From Massilibacteroides sp. (GTDB lineage: Bacteria > Bacteroidota > Bacteroidia > Bacteroidales > Tannerellaceae), in the NCBI RefSeq assembly GCF_028705895.1, contig NZ_JAQWCQ010000001.1, positions 62,001 to 126,000 of the forward strand: DNA of 64,000 nt, written 5' to 3'. Positions within the stretch are counted from its first letter, which is position 1, and each line of letters begins with the position of its first letter. Both the position numbers and the translations under genes were made by a program. The notes below the pieces were generated by a model. That model made no database searches and was not told where the DNA came from. It was given only the letters and a program-made list of their open reading frames with translations. This document shows positions 50,950 to 63,036 of the stretch, one piece after another.

Positions 50950-51753
50950 CTAATTCTCTTTTCCGTATAAGTCCTGCATGATAAGTCCCGCAAGTGTAAA
51001 TCCGAAAATAGCGGTTGTATGTGCCATCGTTCCGTTAATCCGGGCTTTCAGACTGCACCATTCATGGTTGACTAAATCGGGATCTCCCGGCCCATTATTC
51101 GTTTTGGGGCATAGGCATTTCTCTGTGCCGCAAGACGAATTTGAGCCTTTATTCTCTAAAAGTTCCTCACTGAAAACACACTTGAACTTTTTGGCCGGCT
51201 TTTCTCCTTTTTTCATCTTCCGCCTTAAAGCAGCCGCAAGCGGACATCCCTTTACCTTCCAGAATTCAGCAACCTGTATCTTCAACGGATCTAACTTTAA
51301 GGCAGCTCCCATAGAAGAAATAAAGACGGCGTTTGTCCGGGTAGCCCGGCGTATCAAATCCGCTTTATTCTCCAAACTGTCGATCGCGTCAACAATATAA
51401 TCGTAGGAGTCTAACTGAAATGAAGCGGCGGTATCGGCTTCGTAGATTTGCTGAAGAGCCGTAATCTCCGCTTTCGGATTAATTTCCATCAAACGGGCTT
51501 TCAGGACATCAACCTTGACCTGCCCGACAGTCTTCGTCGTAGCCATCAGTTGCCGGTTAATGTTTGTTACACAAACCCTGTCGGAATCGACGATTGTCAG
51601 ATGACGAATCCCTGATCGTATCAGGCTTTCGGCGCACCAACTGCCAACTCCGCCAACACCGAAAATAACAACTCTGGCATTACCGATTCTATCCATCACC
51701 GTGTTGCCCACTAATAATTCGGTACGATTAAACAAGCCGCGTTCTATACCCAT
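50950..51753 (-). CDS. tcdA: tRNA threonylcarbamoyladenosine dehydratase (ThiF/E1-like)
   Basis: MGIERGLFNRTELLVGNTVMDRIGNARVVIFGVGGVGSWCAESLIRSGI; the C-terminal Cys-rich loop matches this family. The ORF track start at 51807 is probably too far upstream. Confidence 0.9.
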   Translation of the reverse strand: MGIERGLFNRTELLVGNTVMDRIGNARVVIFGVGGVGSWCAESLIRSGIRHLTIVDSDRVCVTNINRQLMATTKTVGQVKVDVLKARLMEINPKAEITALQQIYEADTAASFQLDSYDYIVDAIDSLENKADLIRRATRTNAVFISSMGAALKLDPLKIQVAEFWKVKGCPLAAALRRKMKKGEKPAKKFKCVFSEELLENKGSNSSCGTEKCLCPKTNNGPGDPDLVNHEWCSLKARINGTMAHTTAIFGFTLAGLIMQDLYGKEN

Positions 51754-51963
51754 TTTTCTTTTTTCTGAATTCGGAATGCAAAAGTACAATAAATCCGAAC
51801 GTTGCAAAATAGCGGGAATACGTAATTCACAAAGGCTTACAGCATTTGTCTTTTTTATGTTCGCGTTAAATTTTATTCACAAAAAGGAAGCATCCATTAA
51901 ATCACTACACATGTTATATTTGTGACGACAGATTAATAAAAACAACTAAACAGGTATTAAACG

Positions 51964-52182
51964 ATGAAAAAGTTAATGATTTCAGCCATTATGGCATTTG
52001 CACTTATGACATCAGTTAGCGTAATGGCGCAAGACAATAAGAAGAAAGATGCTGACACCAAGGCAAAAACAGAAGCTTGCTGTAAAAAAGACGCAGATAA
52101 GAAAGGAGATAAAAAAGATTGCTGCAAGAAAGAAGGAGATAAGAAAGCTTGTTGCTCTAAAAAAGAAGAGCCAAAGAAATAA
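51964..52182 (+). CDS. Secreted Lys-rich small protein with three vicinal Cys pairs (72 aa)
   Basis: Signal peptide MKKLMISAIMAFALMTSVSVMAQ then DNKKKDADTKAKTEACCKKDADKKGDKKDCCKKEGDKKACCSKKEEPKK; followed by a strong terminator. Confidence 0.8.
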   Translation: MKKLMISAIMAFALMTSVSVMAQDNKKKDADTKAKTEACCKKDADKKGDKKDCCKKEGDKKACCSKKEEPKK

Positions 52183-52199
52183 GTTTTATTTGACAAATA

Positions 52200-52236
52200 C
52201 AAAAGCCCGGAGCCTCGTCGTTTCCGGGCTTTTTTT
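52200..52236 (+). terminator. Rho-independent terminator
   Basis: AAAAGCCCGGA...TTCCGGGCTTTTTTT. Confidence 0.85.
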
Positions 52237-52252
52237 GCATAGTATTTGACGA

Positions 52253-52317
52253 AAAAAAATAAAGGATATAATTGGAAAAATAAAGGATATTTTTCCAATT
52301 ATAACCTTTATATTTTT
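52253..52317. repeat. Long near-perfect inverted repeat (AT-rich hairpin)
   Basis: Left 52259-52280 ATAAAGGATATAATTGGAAAAA pairs with right 52290-52311 TTTTTCCAATTATAACCTTTAT (1 mismatch in 22 bp), extendable to 28 bp with 2 mismatches; 9-nt loop. Confidence 0.9.
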
Positions 52318-52598: not shown

Positions 52599-53504
52599 AT
52601 GAAAAAACAAATAATAATTTCTCTACTATCTCTTCTGCTTTTCGGTTTGCTGATTTCTTCTTGTACTGAAAAACCGCAAATGATACGAATTGGTTTGATT
52701 GCTGATATACAGTATTGTGATTGTGATACGCGGGGAAGCCGTTTTTATAGGAATTCTTTGCCGAAGTTAGAAGCGGCTGTTGACGATATAAACCGGGAAA
52801 ATGTTGATTTTACGGTTAATCTTGGCGACTTGGTTGACCGGGATACGGAAAACAATCTGAGGGCTATCCTGAGCCGGTTGGGAAACTTGGAGAAGATGGT
52901 TTATAATACAACGGGGAATCACGATTATGATGGTGTTGTTGATAATGATGCCTTGTATAAAGAACTTGGAATGCCGTCCGCTTATTATTCTTTCAAGAAG
53001 GGAAGCTGGCGTTTTATTATGCTGAATACGAATGAAGTTGCTTCTTATGCTAATGTAGCAGGTACGGAATTAGAGTCCGAACTGACCGAAATGCAGGAAC
53101 GTATCCGCAAAACAGGAAGGAAGAATGGTGCATCTTATAATGGGGGAATAAGCCGGCAACAAATGAATTGGTTAAAACAAGAACTTGAGACTGCGCAAAA
53201 GAAAAAAGAATATGTGATCGTCTTTTCGCATCACCCATTGTATGCGGCTTCGGGATTAACAGCGTTGAATGATCTTGAAATTCTTGAAGTGCTTGCGTCT
53301 TTCTCTTGTGTAAAAGCAGGGATAAGCGGTCATCATCATCCGGGAGATTTCGGTACCTATAAAGAGATTCCTTTTATTACAACCGAAGGTATGATAGAGA
53401 CGGAAAATGAAAATGCTTATGGCGTTTTAGAATTAACAGCTGATCAGATTCTTCTGAAAGGAAAAGGGCGCACAAAATCTTACGATTTGCCCATAAAGCA
53501 ATAA
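52599..53504 (+). CDS. Metallophosphoesterase lipoprotein
   Basis: Lipobox LISSCTE; IGLIADIQYCD, NLGDLVDRD, TGNHDYDG, FSHHPLY, GISGHHHPG. Confidence 0.92.
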   Translation: MKKQIIISLLSLLLFGLLISSCTEKPQMIRIGLIADIQYCDCDTRGSRFYRNSLPKLEAAVDDINRENVDFTVNLGDLVDRDTENNLRAILSRLGNLEKMVYNTTGNHDYDGVVDNDALYKELGMPSAYYSFKKGSWRFIMLNTNEVASYANVAGTELESELTEMQERIRKTGRKNGASYNGGISRQQMNWLKQELETAQKKKEYVIVFSHHPLYAASGLTALNDLEILEVLASFSCVKAGISGHHHPGDFGTYKEIPFITTEGMIETENENAYGVLELTADQILLKGKGRTKSYDLPIKQ

Positions 53505-55715: not shown

Positions 55716-56816
55716 TTATTTTTCGGCGGTAACTTTGATTAACCGTACCGGCCCGTTGGCATCATTACAAACAATGGTGACCGTTGATTCGAGCTTTGCT
55801 TTAAAATCTTTAGGTCTGATTGTTATTTTAAATGTAGCAGAAGATTGTGGTTTGATTTCTTTTTTACCTCCACTGATATCGATAAAATCATCGTCGGAAG
55901 TAACGCTGTAAATTATTAACGAGGATTTTCCTTTGTTTTCAACCGTAAACGTGCGTGATTCCTTTCCCCCGATTCCTAAAATAGAAGTCTTGGTTTCTAC
56001 TTTCCCAAAATCAACTAAGGTCGTCGGAATGTTAACAAACGGAGCATTTTGTTTCTGGTAGGGAGTACGTTTATTAAAGTTATCAATAATATTTGCTCCT
56101 AAATTAATGTCCTGTACCACTTCTTCATCTCCTTCGGACTGTACTTTTATCGGAATTAAACTATGATAACGTCCTTTTTTTCCATATCCTCCTCCATTAA
56201 ACAAGAAAACAAGTTCTCCCATTTCTCCCGGCTTGAGCGTCGTTGGTCGTGCTTCTGCCGTAATGAAAAGGGGTAGTTGGTCAAATTTTATTGTAAGAGG
56301 GGTTGTTCCGTCATTCTTCACTTCTATCTTTTCTGCTCTGGTTTCATCTAAGCGGATTGAATTAAAAGCGACTGTTTTGGAAAGCATTTTCAGGGAACCG
56401 ATAGCATAAGGATAAGTACGGATTTGCTCTTGCGGTTTTTTTCGTTCTACCTCACCTTCTATAGTCATAACAAAACGCCTTGGCTCTGTATTACTAAAGA
56501 TGGAGATTATTTTGTAGAACTTACCGGGGCGGCCTTCCGGATCATACCATATTTTAATTTCTTTAGTTTCACCGGGTGGAACAGGTTCTTTAGACCATTC
56601 GGGTAGTGTACAACCACAAGAGGTGGTAATACGATCAATAACTAAAGGATTTTGTCCGGTATTCTTAATAACAAATACATGTTCAACCCTACCTTCTTCT
56701 TCTTTTACTACTCCGAATTTATAATTGGGATTGGTTACGCTGATTGTTGTTTTCTGCTGCGCAAAAAGAGAAGACGTGGAAAGTATAAGACTAATAAATA
56801 AGAATAGATGTTTCAC
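55716..56816 (-). CDS. DUF1573-domain secreted protein (long)
   Basis: Signal peptide; KFGVVKEEEGRVEHVFVIKNTGQNPLVIDRITTSCGCTLPEWSKEPVPPGE. Confidence 0.88.
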   Translation of the reverse strand: MKHLFLFISLILSTSSLFAQQKTTISVTNPNYKFGVVKEEEGRVEHVFVIKNTGQNPLVIDRITTSCGCTLPEWSKEPVPPGETKEIKIWYDPEGRPGKFYKIISIFSNTEPRRFVMTIEGEVERKKPQEQIRTYPYAIGSLKMLSKTVAFNSIRLDETRAEKIEVKNDGTTPLTIKFDQLPLFITAEARPTTLKPGEMGELVFLFNGGGYGKKGRYHSLIPIKVQSEGDEEVVQDINLGANIIDNFNKRTPYQKQNAPFVNIPTTLVDFGKVETKTSILGIGGKESRTFTVENKGKSSLIIYSVTSDDDFIDISGGKKEIKPQSSATFKITIRPKDFKAKLESTVTIVCNDANGPVRLIKVTAEK

Positions 56817-56851
56817 CTTTTATGATCGTATTTAGGTGAGGCATAGCTCAA

Positions 56852-57229
56852 TTACTGAACTTCGCCTCTGATCGTTAATACAAAACTTCCTGTTTTGCCA
56901 TTACTGTAAACAGATATTGTTTTAGCAAATGGACCTGGACGACCTTTAGGATCAAAAGTAATTTTAATCTCGCCTTCTTTTCCTGCAGCGATCGGTTCTT
57001 TTGTCCAGTTAGGAGTCGTACATCCGCAAGAAGCGATTACACGTGTAATAACTAAAGGAGCATCTCCCTGGTTCTTAATCTTAAATGTATGGGTTACTGT
57101 TCCGTTATCTTCCTGAATAGTTCCGAAGTCATGCGTTGTTACTTCGGCTGCAATAACGGCTTTGTTTTGAGCAAAAGCTCCCCCCGTCATTAAAAGTAAA
57201 GACATGAAAATAAATACAATCTGTTTCAT
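56852..57229 (-). CDS. DUF1573-domain secreted protein (short)
   Basis: Signal peptide; HDFGTIQEDNGTVTHTFKIKNQGDAPLVITRVIASCGCTTPNWTKEPI. Confidence 0.9.
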   Translation of the reverse strand: MKQIVFIFMSLLLMTGGAFAQNKAVIAAEVTTHDFGTIQEDNGTVTHTFKIKNQGDAPLVITRVIASCGCTTPNWTKEPIAAGKEGEIKITFDPKGRPGPFAKTISVYSNGKTGSFVLTIRGEVQ

Positions 57230-57302: not shown

Positions 57303-60300
57303 TTAATCTTTTATAATTAAACAATATCCATCGGTATGCGAACCGTATTCCGGAGCATATAAACATTGAATGTCCGCCGGACCGGATGCGTATTCTCCGG
57401 ATCGTGAAACGTAAACTCCATACTCCAGAACAACGGTTCCTTCCGGCAAACGGTCAAAGAAGAAATGTTCCGAGGCATCTTTGGACGTTTTATAGAAAGA
57501 AACTCCATCCCTGTATTGAGTACCTGAAACTTGTTCCACAGGTTCAAAACATCCTGCACGCAGATCTTTCAAATGTACATAAGTCATTTCTTGTTTAGCG
57601 CGGATTGTTAATCTGACCACGACCTTTTCTCCCACGCGAAGGTTTTCTCCGTCTTTAATAGAAACCAACGTTTTTCCTTCCGAAGAGACTCGTTCAACAA
57701 ACAATTTCTTGTCTATACTTAAATCTCCCGCGCTCTTCATTACCTGATCTGCTAGTACAAAAAATTGATGATACAAAGCTCCCCAGGCTGGGGCAGAACC
57801 TTCTTTCTTAACTATCACTTTATCTTCGGCTTTGATTTCTGAAGTGTTTTTTGATTTCTTTATATACCCAATTCCAACATTGCCTGTCTTGCTATCGATC
57901 GTTTCATTTCCCCAAGTGACCGTCACCTGATTATTCTCAGACAACCAGCCTTTACCGGTAAGAAGCAAAGCGTAGATGGCATTCAGAGTTGCAGGAGTTG
58001 TTTCCCAGCCCTGCGTACGTTTTTGGTTAAGCAACCATTGCTTCATCCCTTCTACTTCTGCTTCAATAGGGTTGATCTCAGCAAAAGCAATCATTAACAA
58101 GGTGTGAGTTTCAATTGGAGAGACCGGAGAAAAGCCATTTCTGCGGTTATTTGCCCAGAAGAATCCTTGTTCCTCCGATTTTGTTGCCGTACGTTTGAAC
58201 CAGTTCATGATCGTTTGCGCCTGTTCTTTCTTTCTGTTCCTATGCAATAATAAAGCTGTCTGAACTTTCATTCGTAATGGTAATTTCTGCCATTGCTTTT
58301 CTGCCTGATCCGTATAGAAACGAATAGCCTCACGCGTCTCTGATGCTTCCGGAATATCCCGGTAAGTGCTACGCATAAGAATATAAGCTAATTGTGTTTC
58401 TGACGGAGTCGTGTTTTTCCAATTCTTATTGACTTTCTTCAATAACTCGAAATCTTTCTGAATCTGTAGGTCTAAGAACTTCAACGCATTCATCTGCATT
58501 TCTTTTTCTTCCTGTCCGTATTGTACAGCATTCAGACGTACTAAGTCGGCCATTCCTTGAAGAATAGAAACGGTTATGATTCGATCAGCCCCGAACCCGC
58601 TAAACCAACCCCAGGCTCCATCCTCACGCTGGAGACGAATTAACTCCTGCAATGCTTGTGCACGTTGACCGTCTGCCCGGTTCATATCAAAAAGCAGATT
58701 TAAACGTTGGATTTGTTCCGTTTCATTCTCAGCTTCCAGCACCCAGGGTGTTTCTTCAAGAATCACATTTTTCAGTTCTTCGTTTTTCTCTAAATTAGAA
58801 AGTAGGGAAGAAGCGTCCCCCTTTTTTGCAGCCCATTGATCAATGACTGTTTTAATACGTGGGTTCGCTTTGACGATTGAAGAGGCTAACGTATTACTAT
58901 AATACGATGCAAACCAAGCAGAAACACTGTTGTTCACCGGAGTTGAAAGGTTAGGCAAGGCTTGTACGGCATACCAGATTGGATTTGCACTAATCTCCAA
59001 GGTTTGTTTGTATGGGCGATCGTTTGTATTATTTTGTTTTGTTATATGAATTTCTTTCTCTCCTTCTCCTTTCAAATATATTGGTGTACTTTCTGTGAGT
59101 AACACTTCATTAGACAGTACCGGTAATAGATGTTGTTCGCCGTCACTTACCGTTTCCGTATCGGCAACAATACGAACACCCAGTAAATCTTTACCTGAAA
59201 CAATCGGAATCGTCCAACTTGCAACGGTTTGTTTACCTGCTGCTAAGTCAAAAGGATAAGCCGATTTCGATAAACAAAGAATCGGCTCTTCTGTTTTGGG
59301 GTCAAATATTTCCAGACGAACTCGTCCGGATAAATCGTCATCCGAACGATTAATTACCTGTGTACTGATCGTTACTTCATCACCCTGACGAACAAAACGC
59401 GGAAGATTAGGTAAAACCATCAATGGTTTACTTGAGATAAGCTCTTTTGTGAATCGCCCGTATTTCACGTCTTTTGTATGAGCTAAAGCCTGAAGTTTCC
59501 AGGTCGTATTGCTTTCGGGTAAAGTGAAATTGACCGTAAAGTTACCTTCACTATCCGTTCTCAGTACAGGATAGAAGAAAGCCGTCTCATTGAAATTCTG
59601 TCTTAGTGGGGTTTCTTTCTTTATTTCCCCTGCGCCAAGTTCCTTGTTGGACGGACTTGGAGCAACCGGTGACGCATTTTCCTCAACGACTGACTCGGTC
59701 AAAACCATATCAGACTCCATCTCAACGGCTTGGTTTTTCATTGCTCCTAAAGAAGCTGACTGGCGTGTAGCAAAAGCGTAGGTTGTCAACATGGCTTGTT
59801 GCCAATTGAACCTGCTATATTCAAATTCGGGCACTTTTTTGTAATCAATCTTTCCATAATCAGAGCTGACATGAAACCAATAAGCCCCATTGTTCCTGAA
59901 AGCCGAAGCATATATATAAGGATAAGTGATCGGTGAAAAGTTCCAATTAAAAGGCTGAATTGCATCAAGCGAAGCATCGTACATGGAAGCAAGAACCTCA
60001 GCTGCTGCAGGTAAAGAATCCGGATTAAGAACTCTGAAAGTCCAGCTTTCCTTATTGCCGGGTATGAGTTTGTCACGGAAAGTCTCTGTTTTAATTGTCA
60101 ACTCTTTACTGGGGCGTTGTTTGTTAATTATGACCTGACGTGTATATAGTTTACCTTCTTTGATGAACGTAAACAATGCCGCAGCACCATCACCGTATTT
60201 CTCAAGGAACGGCACAATAATCTCGCGGTTTTCATTGGACAACTCCATTCGCTTACGTTCCACCACTTTGTTGTTCACATATAATTCATAAAGCACATAG

Positions 60301-62909
60301 GCCTTTTTATGCGATGTGCCAAATACGAACTGGACTTCTTGGCCAGGCAAACAGGAAAGACTATTTTCTGTAATCCAGATATCCGAAAAAACAGGAGGCC
60401 GTTTGTCTTTATCTGTGTAGAGAATAACATCCTGTTCCAGTTCGACCTGACGTCCTTTACTGTCTGTTGCCTCTAAACGAATCCGGTAATTGCCCGAATG
60501 TAAATCAGCAAATACTTTTGCATTAATTGGTGATTCTGTCGTGAATTTGTCTGAAATCACTTCTTCACCCTGTATCGTTTTAAGATCTTCTCCCTTTTTT
60601 GCCCTCTCTTGTTTTAATGCATAAATACGATATATCCCTTCTGCTTTTGTCGGTTCCCCATTCAATGTGTGAGCATTTATCCGAACTGACAGATTCTCCT
60701 TTTTCATTATGTCCCGTAAAGACGTTGACAAGACAATACTACTGCTACCTACTGAAAAGGACGAATTTGTTTCTTGCGTTTCCCCCTTGCTATCACTCAA
60801 CGTTGCAATCACTTCATAAGAGGCATAGGCAGGAAAACCCAGTAGTTGTTCTTGTTTTGTCGGTACAAATTCAAACTGGAATCCACCATTTTCATCTAAT
60901 TGCGTTTCGCCGGACAATAACTGAGTTTCCTGAAAATAGGAAGAATTGGAATAGAAACGGAATGGACGAAGAATTACCCGATAATTAACCTTTCCGCTTT
61001 GCAGTGGTACTCCCGAAAAAGTTTGTGCTTTCCCCTTAATCGTAACCGTATCTCCAAAAGCAACCTCGTCTTTTATAGAATTGATCTCCACATTAAACGT
61101 CGGACGTTTATATTCTTCAACACGAAAATACTGTGTCTCATTTTCCGCAGATAAAGAAAATGAACCATTCAATCCATATTTAGGCAAAGTAAACTCTCCA
61201 TGAAATGATCCAAACTCATTGGTCGTAAAATCACGAGTGGCAACTTCCTTATGGTTTGCATCACGAAGAATGACTGTTAGCGTTTTATTCGCAACGACAG
61301 ACTGGTTTTCTTTTTCACTATCATAAACAATACCTTTAACATAGACATTCTGTCCCGGACGATATAGCCCCCTGTCTGTAAAGAGTGATACTTTTGTTTT
61401 TGTGTCTGTGTTTCCGCCAGAATAGCTACTCCCTAAATAAATAGAAGAAAGAGGAGTATTCGTGTCACCTTTATATACGGCTCTGAAGTAGCGGATATCT
61501 TTTTTCTCCGGTACTCTTGCAATACCATTTAAATCCGTTTGAAGGGAGTCAACGATAATTGGCTTGTTTTGTTTATTGCTATACAATAAAACAGTTCCCT
61601 TTTCAATAGGCTTTCCGGAATATAAGTCCGTAACCAAAATATCCGCACCTCCTGCAGAAGTAGAACGAGAAACAGCCATTACTTTACTAACGAACATGTA
61701 ATTCGTAGATTCTAAAAGCTTATCAGGCACCGTTATTTCATAAAAATAGATTCCTCCTTCATCTAAGCCGGTTATCCAGATTGATGTATCCACACGCTGA
61801 TATGTATTCGGAGTCTCTAAAGACGCGCGAATCTGGCGCACTAACTTTCTGTTTCCTTTGCTTTTTTCTTTTTGTTGGGCTGTCCAGTAATCATAACTGT
61901 TTACCTCTTCAGGTGTTAAATCCGTTTCATATACCTTGATGTTTATCGAATGTACATTCTTGTAATTAAGTCCAAGTTTTACTTCATGACCCGGGTAGGC
62001 AACTGCCGGCAAGGATACTTGCAGTTCCGGGTTTTGAATAGATCCGATTTTATTTTTAAAATAGTTGATGCGTTCATAAGACGGATAACGATCCACTGCC
62101 TGCTGACATAGTTCAATAATATCTTTATAAATTGTACTTTCCTGTGTATTAGCCGAATAATAAGTCGTCATTTCTAATCCCTCTACTTTGCGAATCCATA
62201 CTTCCGCTGCAAAATCATAAGAAGAAAACTGATCATACAAACTGTCTAACGATGCAAAATACGACTTCTTGTTTTCCTCATTATAAAAGGACCCTCTGTT
62301 TTTGAATGAGAGATAATCTAATTCAGCCAACAAAAGCGCTTTCGGATTATTGGCTTTCTTTTTATAAGCGATTAGAGTACGGTATAATTCATCAGATGGA
62401 TTTACTTCCAAAGCACGATAGATCAGGTAGTCGTATAAAGTAGGACGTAAAGCCTCATCCTTTCCGACTTCAAGAATGTCCGCGTAGTTGCTTATAGGCA
62501 CTTGTTGCAAAAGTTGTGCAGGTTGTAGGGAGAGAGAATACTCTTCTTCAATCTTTTCCTTAAAAATAGTAGAAGTCCATTCATTTATATCTTCGGGAAT
62601 GTATCCGATGATTGGACTACGCTGTCTGTATTTCCACCCATGCGTTCCTTCAAAACTGGCGTACATCTCCGCAATAAGAGAATGAAGAATCGCAGCTTCT
62701 TCTGCTTTCTCACAAGAGGCTGCGCGAGTTTCCACTTCTTTAATTAAAGCTGGATAACGAGCTTCATCAATCTCGGTTTCCCCTTTAATTCGTTCAACTA
62801 ATTCTTTTATAGAAAAGGGAGTTTCTTTCTTCTTATTTGTCTGTGCTGTCATTTGTAACGGTAAACTACAAAGTAGTGCATATATAAGCGTTATTGCTAT
62901 CTTCTTCAT
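57303..62909 (-). CDS. Alpha-2-macroglobulin family protein (MG domains), secreted, no CxEQ thioester motif seen
   Basis: About 1868 aa; signal peptide MKKIAITLIYALLCSLPLQMTAQ; FTDRGLYRPGQNVYVKGIVYD; FYPVLRTDSEGNFTVNFTLPESNTTWKLQALAHTKD. Confidence 0.93.
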   Translation of the reverse strand: MKKIAITLIYALLCSLPLQMTAQTNKKKETPFSIKELVERIKGETEIDEARYPALIKEVETRAASCEKAEEAAILHSLIAEMYASFEGTHGWKYRQRSPIIGYIPEDINEWTSTIFKEKIEEEYSLSLQPAQLLQQVPISNYADILEVGKDEALRPTLYDYLIYRALEVNPSDELYRTLIAYKKKANNPKALLLAELDYLSFKNRGSFYNEENKKSYFASLDSLYDQFSSYDFAAEVWIRKVEGLEMTTYYSANTQESTIYKDIIELCQQAVDRYPSYERINYFKNKIGSIQNPELQVSLPAVAYPGHEVKLGLNYKNVHSINIKVYETDLTPEEVNSYDYWTAQQKEKSKGNRKLVRQIRASLETPNTYQRVDTSIWITGLDEGGIYFYEITVPDKLLESTNYMFVSKVMAVSRSTSAGGADILVTDLYSGKPIEKGTVLLYSNKQNKPIIVDSLQTDLNGIARVPEKKDIRYFRAVYKGDTNTPLSSIYLGSSYSGGNTDTKTKVSLFTDRGLYRPGQNVYVKGIVYDSEKENQSVVANKTLTVILRDANHKEVATRDFTTNEFGSFHGEFTLPKYGLNGSFSLSAENETQYFRVEEYKRPTFNVEINSIKDEVAFGDTVTIKGKAQTFSGVPLQSGKVNYRVILRPFRFYSNSSYFQETQLLSGETQLDENGGFQFEFVPTKQEQLLGFPAYASYEVIATLSDSKGETQETNSSFSVGSSSIVLSTSLRDIMKKENLSVRINAHTLNGEPTKAEGIYRIYALKQERAKKGEDLKTIQGEEVISDKFTTESPINAKVFADLHSGNYRIRLEATDSKGRQVELEQDVILYTDKDKRPPVFSDIWITENSLSCLPGQEVQFVFGTSHKKAYVLYELYVNNKVVERKRMELSNENREIIVPFLEKYGDGAAALFTFIKEGKLYTRQVIINKQRPSKELTIKTETFRDKLIPGNKESWTFRVLNPDSLPAAAEVLASMYDASLDAIQPFNWNFSPITYPYIYASAFRNNGAYWFHVSSDYGKIDYKKVPEFEYSRFNWQQAMLTTYAFATRQSASLGAMKNQAVEMESDMVLTESVVEENASPVAPSPSNKELGAGEIKKETPLRQNFNETAFFYPVLRTDSEGNFTVNFTLPESNTTWKLQALAHTKDVKYGRFTKELISSKPLMVLPNLPRFVRQGDEVTISTQVINRSDDDLSGRVRLEIFDPKTEEPILCLSKSAYPFDLAAGKQTVASWTIPIVSGKDLLGVRIVADTETVSDGEQHLLPVLSNEVLLTESTPIYLKGEGEKEIHITKQNNTNDRPYKQTLEISANPIWYAVQALPNLSTPVNNSVSAWFASYYSNTLASSIVKANPRIKTVIDQWAAKKGDASSLLSNLEKNEELKNVILEETPWVLEAENETEQIQRLNLLFDMNRADGQRAQALQELIRLQREDGAWGWFSGFGADRIITVSILQGMADLVRLNAVQYGQEEKEMQMNALKFLDLQIQKDFELLKKVNKNWKNTTPSETQLAYILMRSTYRDIPEASETREAIRFYTDQAEKQWQKLPLRMKVQTALLLHRNRKKEQAQTIMNWFKRTATKSEEQGFFWANNRRNGFSPVSPIETHTLLMIAFAEINPIEAEVEGMKQWLLNQKRTQGWETTPATLNAIYALLLTGKGWLSENNQVTVTWGNETIDSKTGNVGIGYIKKSKNTSEIKAEDKVIVKKEGSAPAWGALYHQFFVLADQVMKSAGDLSIDKKLFVERVSSEGKTLVSIKDGENLRVGEKVVVRLTIRAKQEMTYVHLKDLRAGCFEPVEQVSGTQYRDGVSFYKTSKDASEHFFFDRLPEGTVVLEYGVYVSRSGEYASGPADIQCLYAPEYGSHTDGYCLIIKD

Positions 62910-63036
62910 TTTCCTTTGATTTATTATAAAACAATCTTCCATAAGTATAGATACAAAGATTGTCTAAAAAAGAGTGAATAAACGGTTAATTAGGCATAAA
63001 AGTAAGAAAAATAAGGAGAAGATACGGCTTTTCGTA

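What the first reader, a model, noticed from the sequence alone, without database searches (positions are those of the whole stretch)
51964..52182. Secreted Lys/Asp-rich peptide with three vicinal cysteine pairs
After signal cleavage the mature ~49 aa is about 40% Lys with ACC-KKDADKKGDKKD-CC-KKEGDKKA-CC-SKK. Repeated CC motifs in a charged, disordered peptide suggest a periplasmic metal-binding (metallothionein-like) or redox-sensing function; the repeated KKxGDKK units look like internal duplication. No family is assigned.
Basis: partly seen in the sequence, partly recalled or inferred. Interest (0 to 1): 0.6.

Follow-up and report, generated by a model that had tools for sequence, protein, structure and literature searches.

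The report
Secreted lysine/cysteine-pair peptide family in Bacteroidota
A tiny exported protein made mostly of lysines and pairs of cysteines proves to be a real, evolutionarily guarded gene with relatives across many gut and environmental Bacteroidota; it belongs to no named family, and its build suggests a soft-metal or thiol sponge outside the inner membrane.

Summary
Window 51964-52182 (+) encodes a 72-aa protein: a signal peptide cut before Gln23, then a 50-aa mature part with 19 Lys, 12 Asp/Glu and six Cys in three CC pairs. It is a single-gene unit with a Bacteroidota -7 box (TATATTTG) and its own terminator. Pfam, NCBIfam and the PDB give no acceptable match. Profile searches found relatives throughout Bacteroidia. 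Close orthologs show dN/dS mostly 0.01-0.25 and keep nearly every Cys, so the family is translated and the cysteines matter. In 30 non-redundant members CC is enriched (66 vs 27 expected) while CxC (1) and CxxC (2) are almost absent, with almost no His, Arg or aromatics. That is not the metallothionein layout. Context is mixed: the gene sits divergent from an RprXY-like sensor-regulator pair in four families, follows a thioredoxin gene in one flavobacterial genus, and has conserved housekeeping neighbours elsewhere (tcdA-lolD, psd, sufS). One relative is fused to an NlpE domain; another lies near a heavy-metal-associated protein. Most likely it is an exported disordered dithiol sponge for soft metals (0.45), with redox or sulfane-sulfur buffering as main rival. 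Metal binding was not tested.

The parts
51964..52182 (+). gene for the 72-aa secreted Lys/Cys-pair peptide
   Evidence: homologs; purifying selection between related orthologs
51964..52029 (+). signal peptide MKKLMISAIMAFALMTSVSVMA, cut before Gln23 (Bacteroidetes Q-rule)
   Evidence: read from the sequence; Q-rule PMC5837995, PMC10653852; cleavage not measured
52078..52083 (+). CC pair 1 (residues 39-40), in the recurrent context KTE-x-CC-KK
52120..52125 (+). CC pair 2 (residues 53-54)
52150..52155 (+). CC pair 3 (residues 63-64); with pair 2 forms a 10-aa imperfect repeat
51915..51922 (+). Bacteroidota -7 promoter element TATATTTG, 49 nt upstream of the ATG; no clear -33 element seen
   Evidence: TAnnTTTG 25-70 nt upstream in 17 of 31 family members, 1.0 expected
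52205..52236 (+). intrinsic terminator (GCCCGGA ... TCCGGGC then T7), so the gene looks monocistronic
   Evidence: z = -3.8
50950..51753 (-). divergent neighbour, TcdA/HesA-type E1-like enzyme (long form)
   Evidence: best NCBIfam hit TcdA, 155.9 bits, below its 304 cut-off

Best explanation
The gene makes an exported, largely unstructured thiol carrier. It is transcribed alone (inferred from the promoter box and terminator), exported by Sec (inferred), cut before Gln23, and released into the periplasm or beyond. There its pairs of adjacent cysteines, each set among lysines, act as separate dithiol sites that bind soft metal ions (Cu(I), Zn, Cd, Ag or As(III)) and so buffer them: a Cys-based counterpart of the disordered metal sponge SilE. 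Shown here: a real, conserved gene family under purifying selection with a constrained cysteine layout. Inferred: export, disorder, metal binding and buffering.
For: Purifying selection with Cys retention. Cysteine layout across 30 non-redundant members: CC 66 vs 27 expected, CxC 1 vs 27, CxxC 2 vs 26, next Cys typically 7-10 residues away, i.e. discrete dithiol units. Mature parts lack a hydrophobic core; charge-hydropathy puts the window peptide well on the disordered side; single-sequence AlphaFold gives pLDDT 61, pTM 0.42. Natural fusion of a CC/K array to an NlpE domain in a Culturomica MAG lipoprotein (PF04170, E = 5.7e-17). In a Paludibacter MAG the gene lies downstream of a TonB receptor and an HMA protein (PF00403, E = 5e-14). 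A relative in another class carries a sub-threshold YHS/TRASH-like tail. Precedent: SilE is a disordered periplasmic sponge that folds on Ag+ (PMC5008109).
Against: No CPx-ATPase, HMA or NlpE motif was found in 60 neighbourhoods of up to +-6 kb. The fusions are single cases in single genomes; 39 Bacteroidales genomes have NlpE-like matches but no second CC fusion appeared among those inspected. Standard Cu/Zn thiolate motifs (CxC, CxxC) are avoided. No metal-regulator box was identified. Both sister species lack the gene, so it is dispensable.
Confidence: 0.45

Rival explanations
1. Envelope redox or sulfane-sulfur buffer: the cysteine pairs cycle between dithiol and disulfide or persulfide, protecting the periplasm from oxidants or reactive sulfur, in some lineages controlled by an RprXY-type two-component system.
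For: Gene divergent from an HK plus RprY-like regulator (304.9 bits to NCBIfam RprY, cut-off 370) in six genomes of four families, 0 of 20 control loci; RprY in P. gingivalis is tied to oxidative stress (PMC3646045). In a flavobacterial genus the gene follows thioredoxin (3 genomes), and in one genome also Crp, TauE and an MBL-rhodanese. sufS in 6 neighbourhoods of the window's family; OsmC-like protein next door in two genomes (L170, L215; identified by eye).
Against: Most neighbours (psd, purM, pckA, nadB, lolD) have no redox theme; no Trx-like CxxC motif; SufS and TcdA act in the cytoplasm while this protein is exported; no regulation shown.
Confidence: 0.27
2. Cationic disordered envelope protein of the Asr kind: lysines bind LPS, nucleic acid or phosphate polymers, or buffer charge or acid stress, and the cysteines merely cross-link it.
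For: Lys is nearly always used instead of Arg; Cys-poor or Cys-less Lys-rich exported relatives exist (L004, L017, L073); weak Asr matches in 5 of 27 members (best E 0.00096).
Against: Net charge is usually only about +3 to +16 because Asp/Glu are abundant; Asr cut-off not reached; Cys are among the best conserved mature positions.
Confidence: 0.15
3. Secreted antimicrobial or signalling peptide.
For: Small, cationic, Cys-rich, exported.
Against: No immunity, transporter or processing gene beside it; purifying rather than diversifying selection; conserved housekeeping locations.
Confidence: 0.04
4. Not a gene: a low-complexity chance ORF.
For: Short and compositionally biased; the frame is also open on the antisense strand (51957-52298).
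Against: dN/dS far below 1 in related orthologs with Cys kept; promoter box and terminator conserved; 0 look-alikes in 244 kb of controls.
Confidence: 0.02

Closest known systems
SilE/PcoE periplasmic metal sponges
   Same: Small, exported, predicted disordered, repeated short metal-ligand motifs; SilE soaks up metal ions in the periplasm (PMC5008109).
   Different: SilE uses His/Met motifs and sits in the sil operon; this family has essentially no His or Met in the mature part, uses CC pairs, and stands alone as a gene. No homology detected.
Bacterial metallothioneins (SmtA, MymT)
   Same: Small, Cys-rich, charged, no hydrophobic core.
   Different: SmtA and MymT are not known as exported proteins (own knowledge); here the protein is exported, CxC/CxxC are avoided, there is no Pfam match, and Cys are spread as separate pairs rather than dense clusters.
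Asr (acid resistance repetitive basic protein, NF033636)
   Same: Signal peptide followed by a Lys-rich disordered repeat region; weak sub-threshold profile similarity.
   Different: No conserved Cys in Asr (own knowledge); scores here far below the cut-off.
NlpE / YHS / TRASH metal-associated domains
   Same: Appear fused to CC/K arrays in single relatives (L155, L267).
   Different: The window protein itself carries no such domain.

Membership tests
Bacterial metallothionein | Matches a metallothionein profile | tested here: not met
   No metallothionein family in Pfam or NCBIfam scans of the window protein or 27 members
Bacterial metallothionein | Cys arranged in CxC/CxxC clusters | tested here: not met
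   CxC 1 and CxxC 2 observed against about 27 and 26 expected in 30 members
Bacterial metallothionein | Cytosolic | tested here: not met
   Members inspected have an N-terminal signal peptide by sequence; the scan itself required one, localisation not measured
Bacterial metallothionein | Binds several metal ions through thiolates | not testable with these tools
   needs ICP-MS or native MS
SilE/PcoE | Disordered in the apo form, exported | tested here: inconclusive
   Charge-hydropathy says disordered; AlphaFold low confidence with a weak helix 23-47
SilE/PcoE | His/Met metal-binding motifs | tested here: not met
   0 His and no Met in the mature window peptide; nearly none in the family
SilE/PcoE | Encoded in a sil/pco/cus-type operon | tested here: not met
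   No such genes around the window gene or, by motif scan, in 60 neighbourhoods
Asr | NCBIfam NF033636 above cut-off | tested here: not met
   5 of 27 members match weakly, best E 0.00096
Family described here (Bacteroidota Lys/Cys-pair peptides) | Signal peptide plus Lys-rich mature part with at least 3 Cys, mostly as CC, no His or aromatics | tested here: met
   single-sequence hits in relatives of the same family; profile hit E = 5.4e-18, though the window sequence is itself in the profile

The most novel reading that the evidence does not exclude
Bacteroidota make their own class of exported vicinal-dithiol peptides, a periplasmic thiol pool for soft metals and reactive sulfur species, controlled in some lineages by RprXY, that stands in for cytosolic metallothionein or glutathione outside the inner membrane.
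Probability: 0.3. Interest if true: 0.75.

Novelty: new variant of a known kind. Interest (0 to 1): 0.56.

Why it matters
Metal and thiol buffering in the periplasm of Bacteroidota, dominant gut bacteria, is little described. An unnamed family found across the class, with a cysteine layout opposite to metallothioneins, gives concrete genes to knock out in culturable species such as Dysgonomonas mossii. It may also supply a candidate target for the RprXY sensor system, whose signal is unsettled.

Tried and rejected
1) Single-sequence search of named genomes with the window protein found nothing: the family diverges too fast, so alignments were needed. 2) 'Shared tcdA neighbour proves orthology' was weakened: the window's TcdA is a long form, while the canonical TcdA beside relatives such as L005 and L008 is only about 41-43% identical to it; long-form tcdA in 29 other genomes has no CC gene beside it. 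Both sister species lack the gene. 3) Plasmid origin: no plasmid match. 4) NlpE fusion as a general rule: rejected, only one case. 5) Metal-resistance operon as the general context: rejected by motif scan of 60 neighbourhoods. 6) Raw tallies (53/393 Bacteroidales, 129/395 Bacteroidia at E <= 0.001) include weak hits that match only the signal peptide; I rely on hits checked by eye. 7) CC enrichment is partly ascertainment because the profile was seeded with CC-bearing sequences; the absence of CxC and CxxC is less affected. 8) Papers on this family: none found.

Full report
Observation. The ORF at 51964-52182 (+) is as described: MKKLMISAIMAFALMTSVSVMA|QDNKKKDADTKAKTEACCKKDADKKGDKKDCCKKEGDKKACCSKKEEPKK. 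The mature 50 residues hold 19 Lys, 12 Asp/Glu and 6 Cys, all Cys in pairs. Three separate pairs from six Cys has probability 0.0009 by counting, and the ten-residue repeat p = 0.02. The predicted cut before Gln fits the Q-rule of Bacteroidetes exported proteins (PMC5837995, PMC10653852). There is no lipobox, so it is not a lipoprotein.

Transcription unit. A Bacteroidota -7 element TATATTTG lies 49 nt before the ATG; 17 of 31 family members have TAnnTTTG 25-70 nt upstream against 1.0 expected from mononucleotide shuffles. A strong terminator follows the stop codon. The genes on either side, a divergent tcdA-like gene and a metallophosphoesterase-like lipoprotein at 52599-53504 (by eye), are therefore not expected to be in the same unit.

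Family. A single-sequence search of 125 genomes of the same GTDB family gave 16 with matches, 15 of them Cys-bearing on inspection. An alignment (A1) found 53 of 393 Bacteroidales genomes, and a wider one (A2) 129 of 395 Bacteroidia at E <= 0.001, about 44 at E <= 1e-5 by my count. The best loci, read by eye, are exported, Lys-rich and carry 3-11 Cys with few exceptions. One relative lies in another class of the phylum (L267). Named carriers are Dysgonomonas mossii, D. hofstadii, Dysgonomonas sp. PF1-14, and Paludibacter and Culturomica MAGs. Distribution is patchy: both other species of the window's genus lack it.

Selection. In 30-odd comparisons of close orthologs dN/dS was mostly 0.01-0.25 (the highest 0.38), with all or nearly all Cys kept (comparisons are not independent and some dS values are near saturation). 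One pair has identical aligned proteins despite dS 0.27. The family is therefore translated and the cysteines are under constraint. No close ortholog of the window gene itself was available for this test.

Cysteine layout. In 30 non-redundant members CC occurs 66 times against 27 expected from shuffles, CxC once against 27, CxxC twice against 26, and spacings 7-10 are enriched. Ala/Glu tend to precede the Cys, Thr/Asp/Lys/Pro to follow it. His, Arg, aromatic and aliphatic residues are nearly absent. This describes discrete dithiol units on a soluble chain that is probably disordered. The profile was seeded with CC sequences, so the CC excess is partly ascertainment.

Context. Neighbours were compared in 60 family loci of up to +-6 kb and 20 control loci from the same genomes. 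Recurrent neighbours: lolD/tcdA, sufS with rnhB and sufE, psd, purM, and an HK plus OmpR-type regulator; names other than the profiled ones are by eye. The kinase-regulator pair is divergent from the peptide gene in six genomes of four families and absent from the controls. Its regulator scores best against NCBIfam RprY (304.9 bits, cut-off 370), so RprY-like rather than RprY. RprY of P. gingivalis is linked to oxidative stress (PMC3646045). In one flavobacterial genus the gene follows thioredoxin in three genomes, and in one of these the cluster also holds Crp, TauE and an MBL-rhodanese protein upstream and an RND efflux system downstream. No metal P-type ATPase, HMA or NlpE motif appeared in the 60 neighbourhoods.

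Rare fusions. In Culturomica a lipoprotein carries a CC/K array followed by an NlpE domain (E = 5.7e-17); in Paludibacter the gene lies downstream of a TonB receptor and an HMA protein; in a Flavobacteriales MAG a CC/K tail ends a membrane pyrophosphatase. L267 has a sub-threshold YHS/TRASH-like tail. These point to metals but are single cases, mostly from MAGs.

Interpretation. The leading explanation is an exported disordered dithiol sponge for soft metals, working like SilE but with Cys in place of His/Met (PMC5008109). The main rival is redox or sulfane-sulfur buffering, for which the recurrent neighbours speak more than for metals; the two are chemically compatible. The family is not a metallothionein by tested criteria.

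Limits. No binding, localisation or expression data were available. AlphaFold on the single sequence is low confidence (pLDDT 61) and its weak helix should not be over-read. Taxon labels of most genomes are anonymous.

Noticed in passing
window 50950-51753 (-): TcdA/HesA-type enzyme of a long form, about 41% identical to the canonical Bacteroidales TcdA and carrying an extra Cys-containing stretch (CGTEKCLCPK); it is the only TcdA hit in this genome and is also the form seen in several other genera.
   Followed up: partly
L153 591-3146: Membrane-bound pyrophosphatase in a Flavobacteriales MAG with a long Cys/Lys-rich C-terminal tail containing CC repeats.
   Followed up: partly
L155 2983-3582: Lipoprotein with a CC/K array fused to an NlpE domain in a Culturomica MAG; NlpE relatives inspected lack the array.
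   Followed up: yes
L170, L174, L176, L185, L188, L215: RprXY-like sensor kinases beside the peptide gene have cysteines in their predicted periplasmic domain, which might read thiol state or metals.
   Followed up: partly
L102 (sister species G032): Small lipoprotein with repeated HEGHDHSK units, probably metal-binding, in a species that lacks the Cys peptide.
   Followed up: no
L004, L017, L073, L075: Lys-rich small exported proteins with no or one Cys, matched mainly through the signal peptide; in L075 one lies next to a Cys-bearing member.
   Followed up: partly
window 55716-57229 (-): Two adjacent exported proteins sharing a CGCTxPxW motif (DUF1573-like by eye).
   Followed up: no
window 57303-62942 (-): 1879-aa exported protein resembling bacterial alpha-2-macroglobulin by eye.
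   Followed up: no
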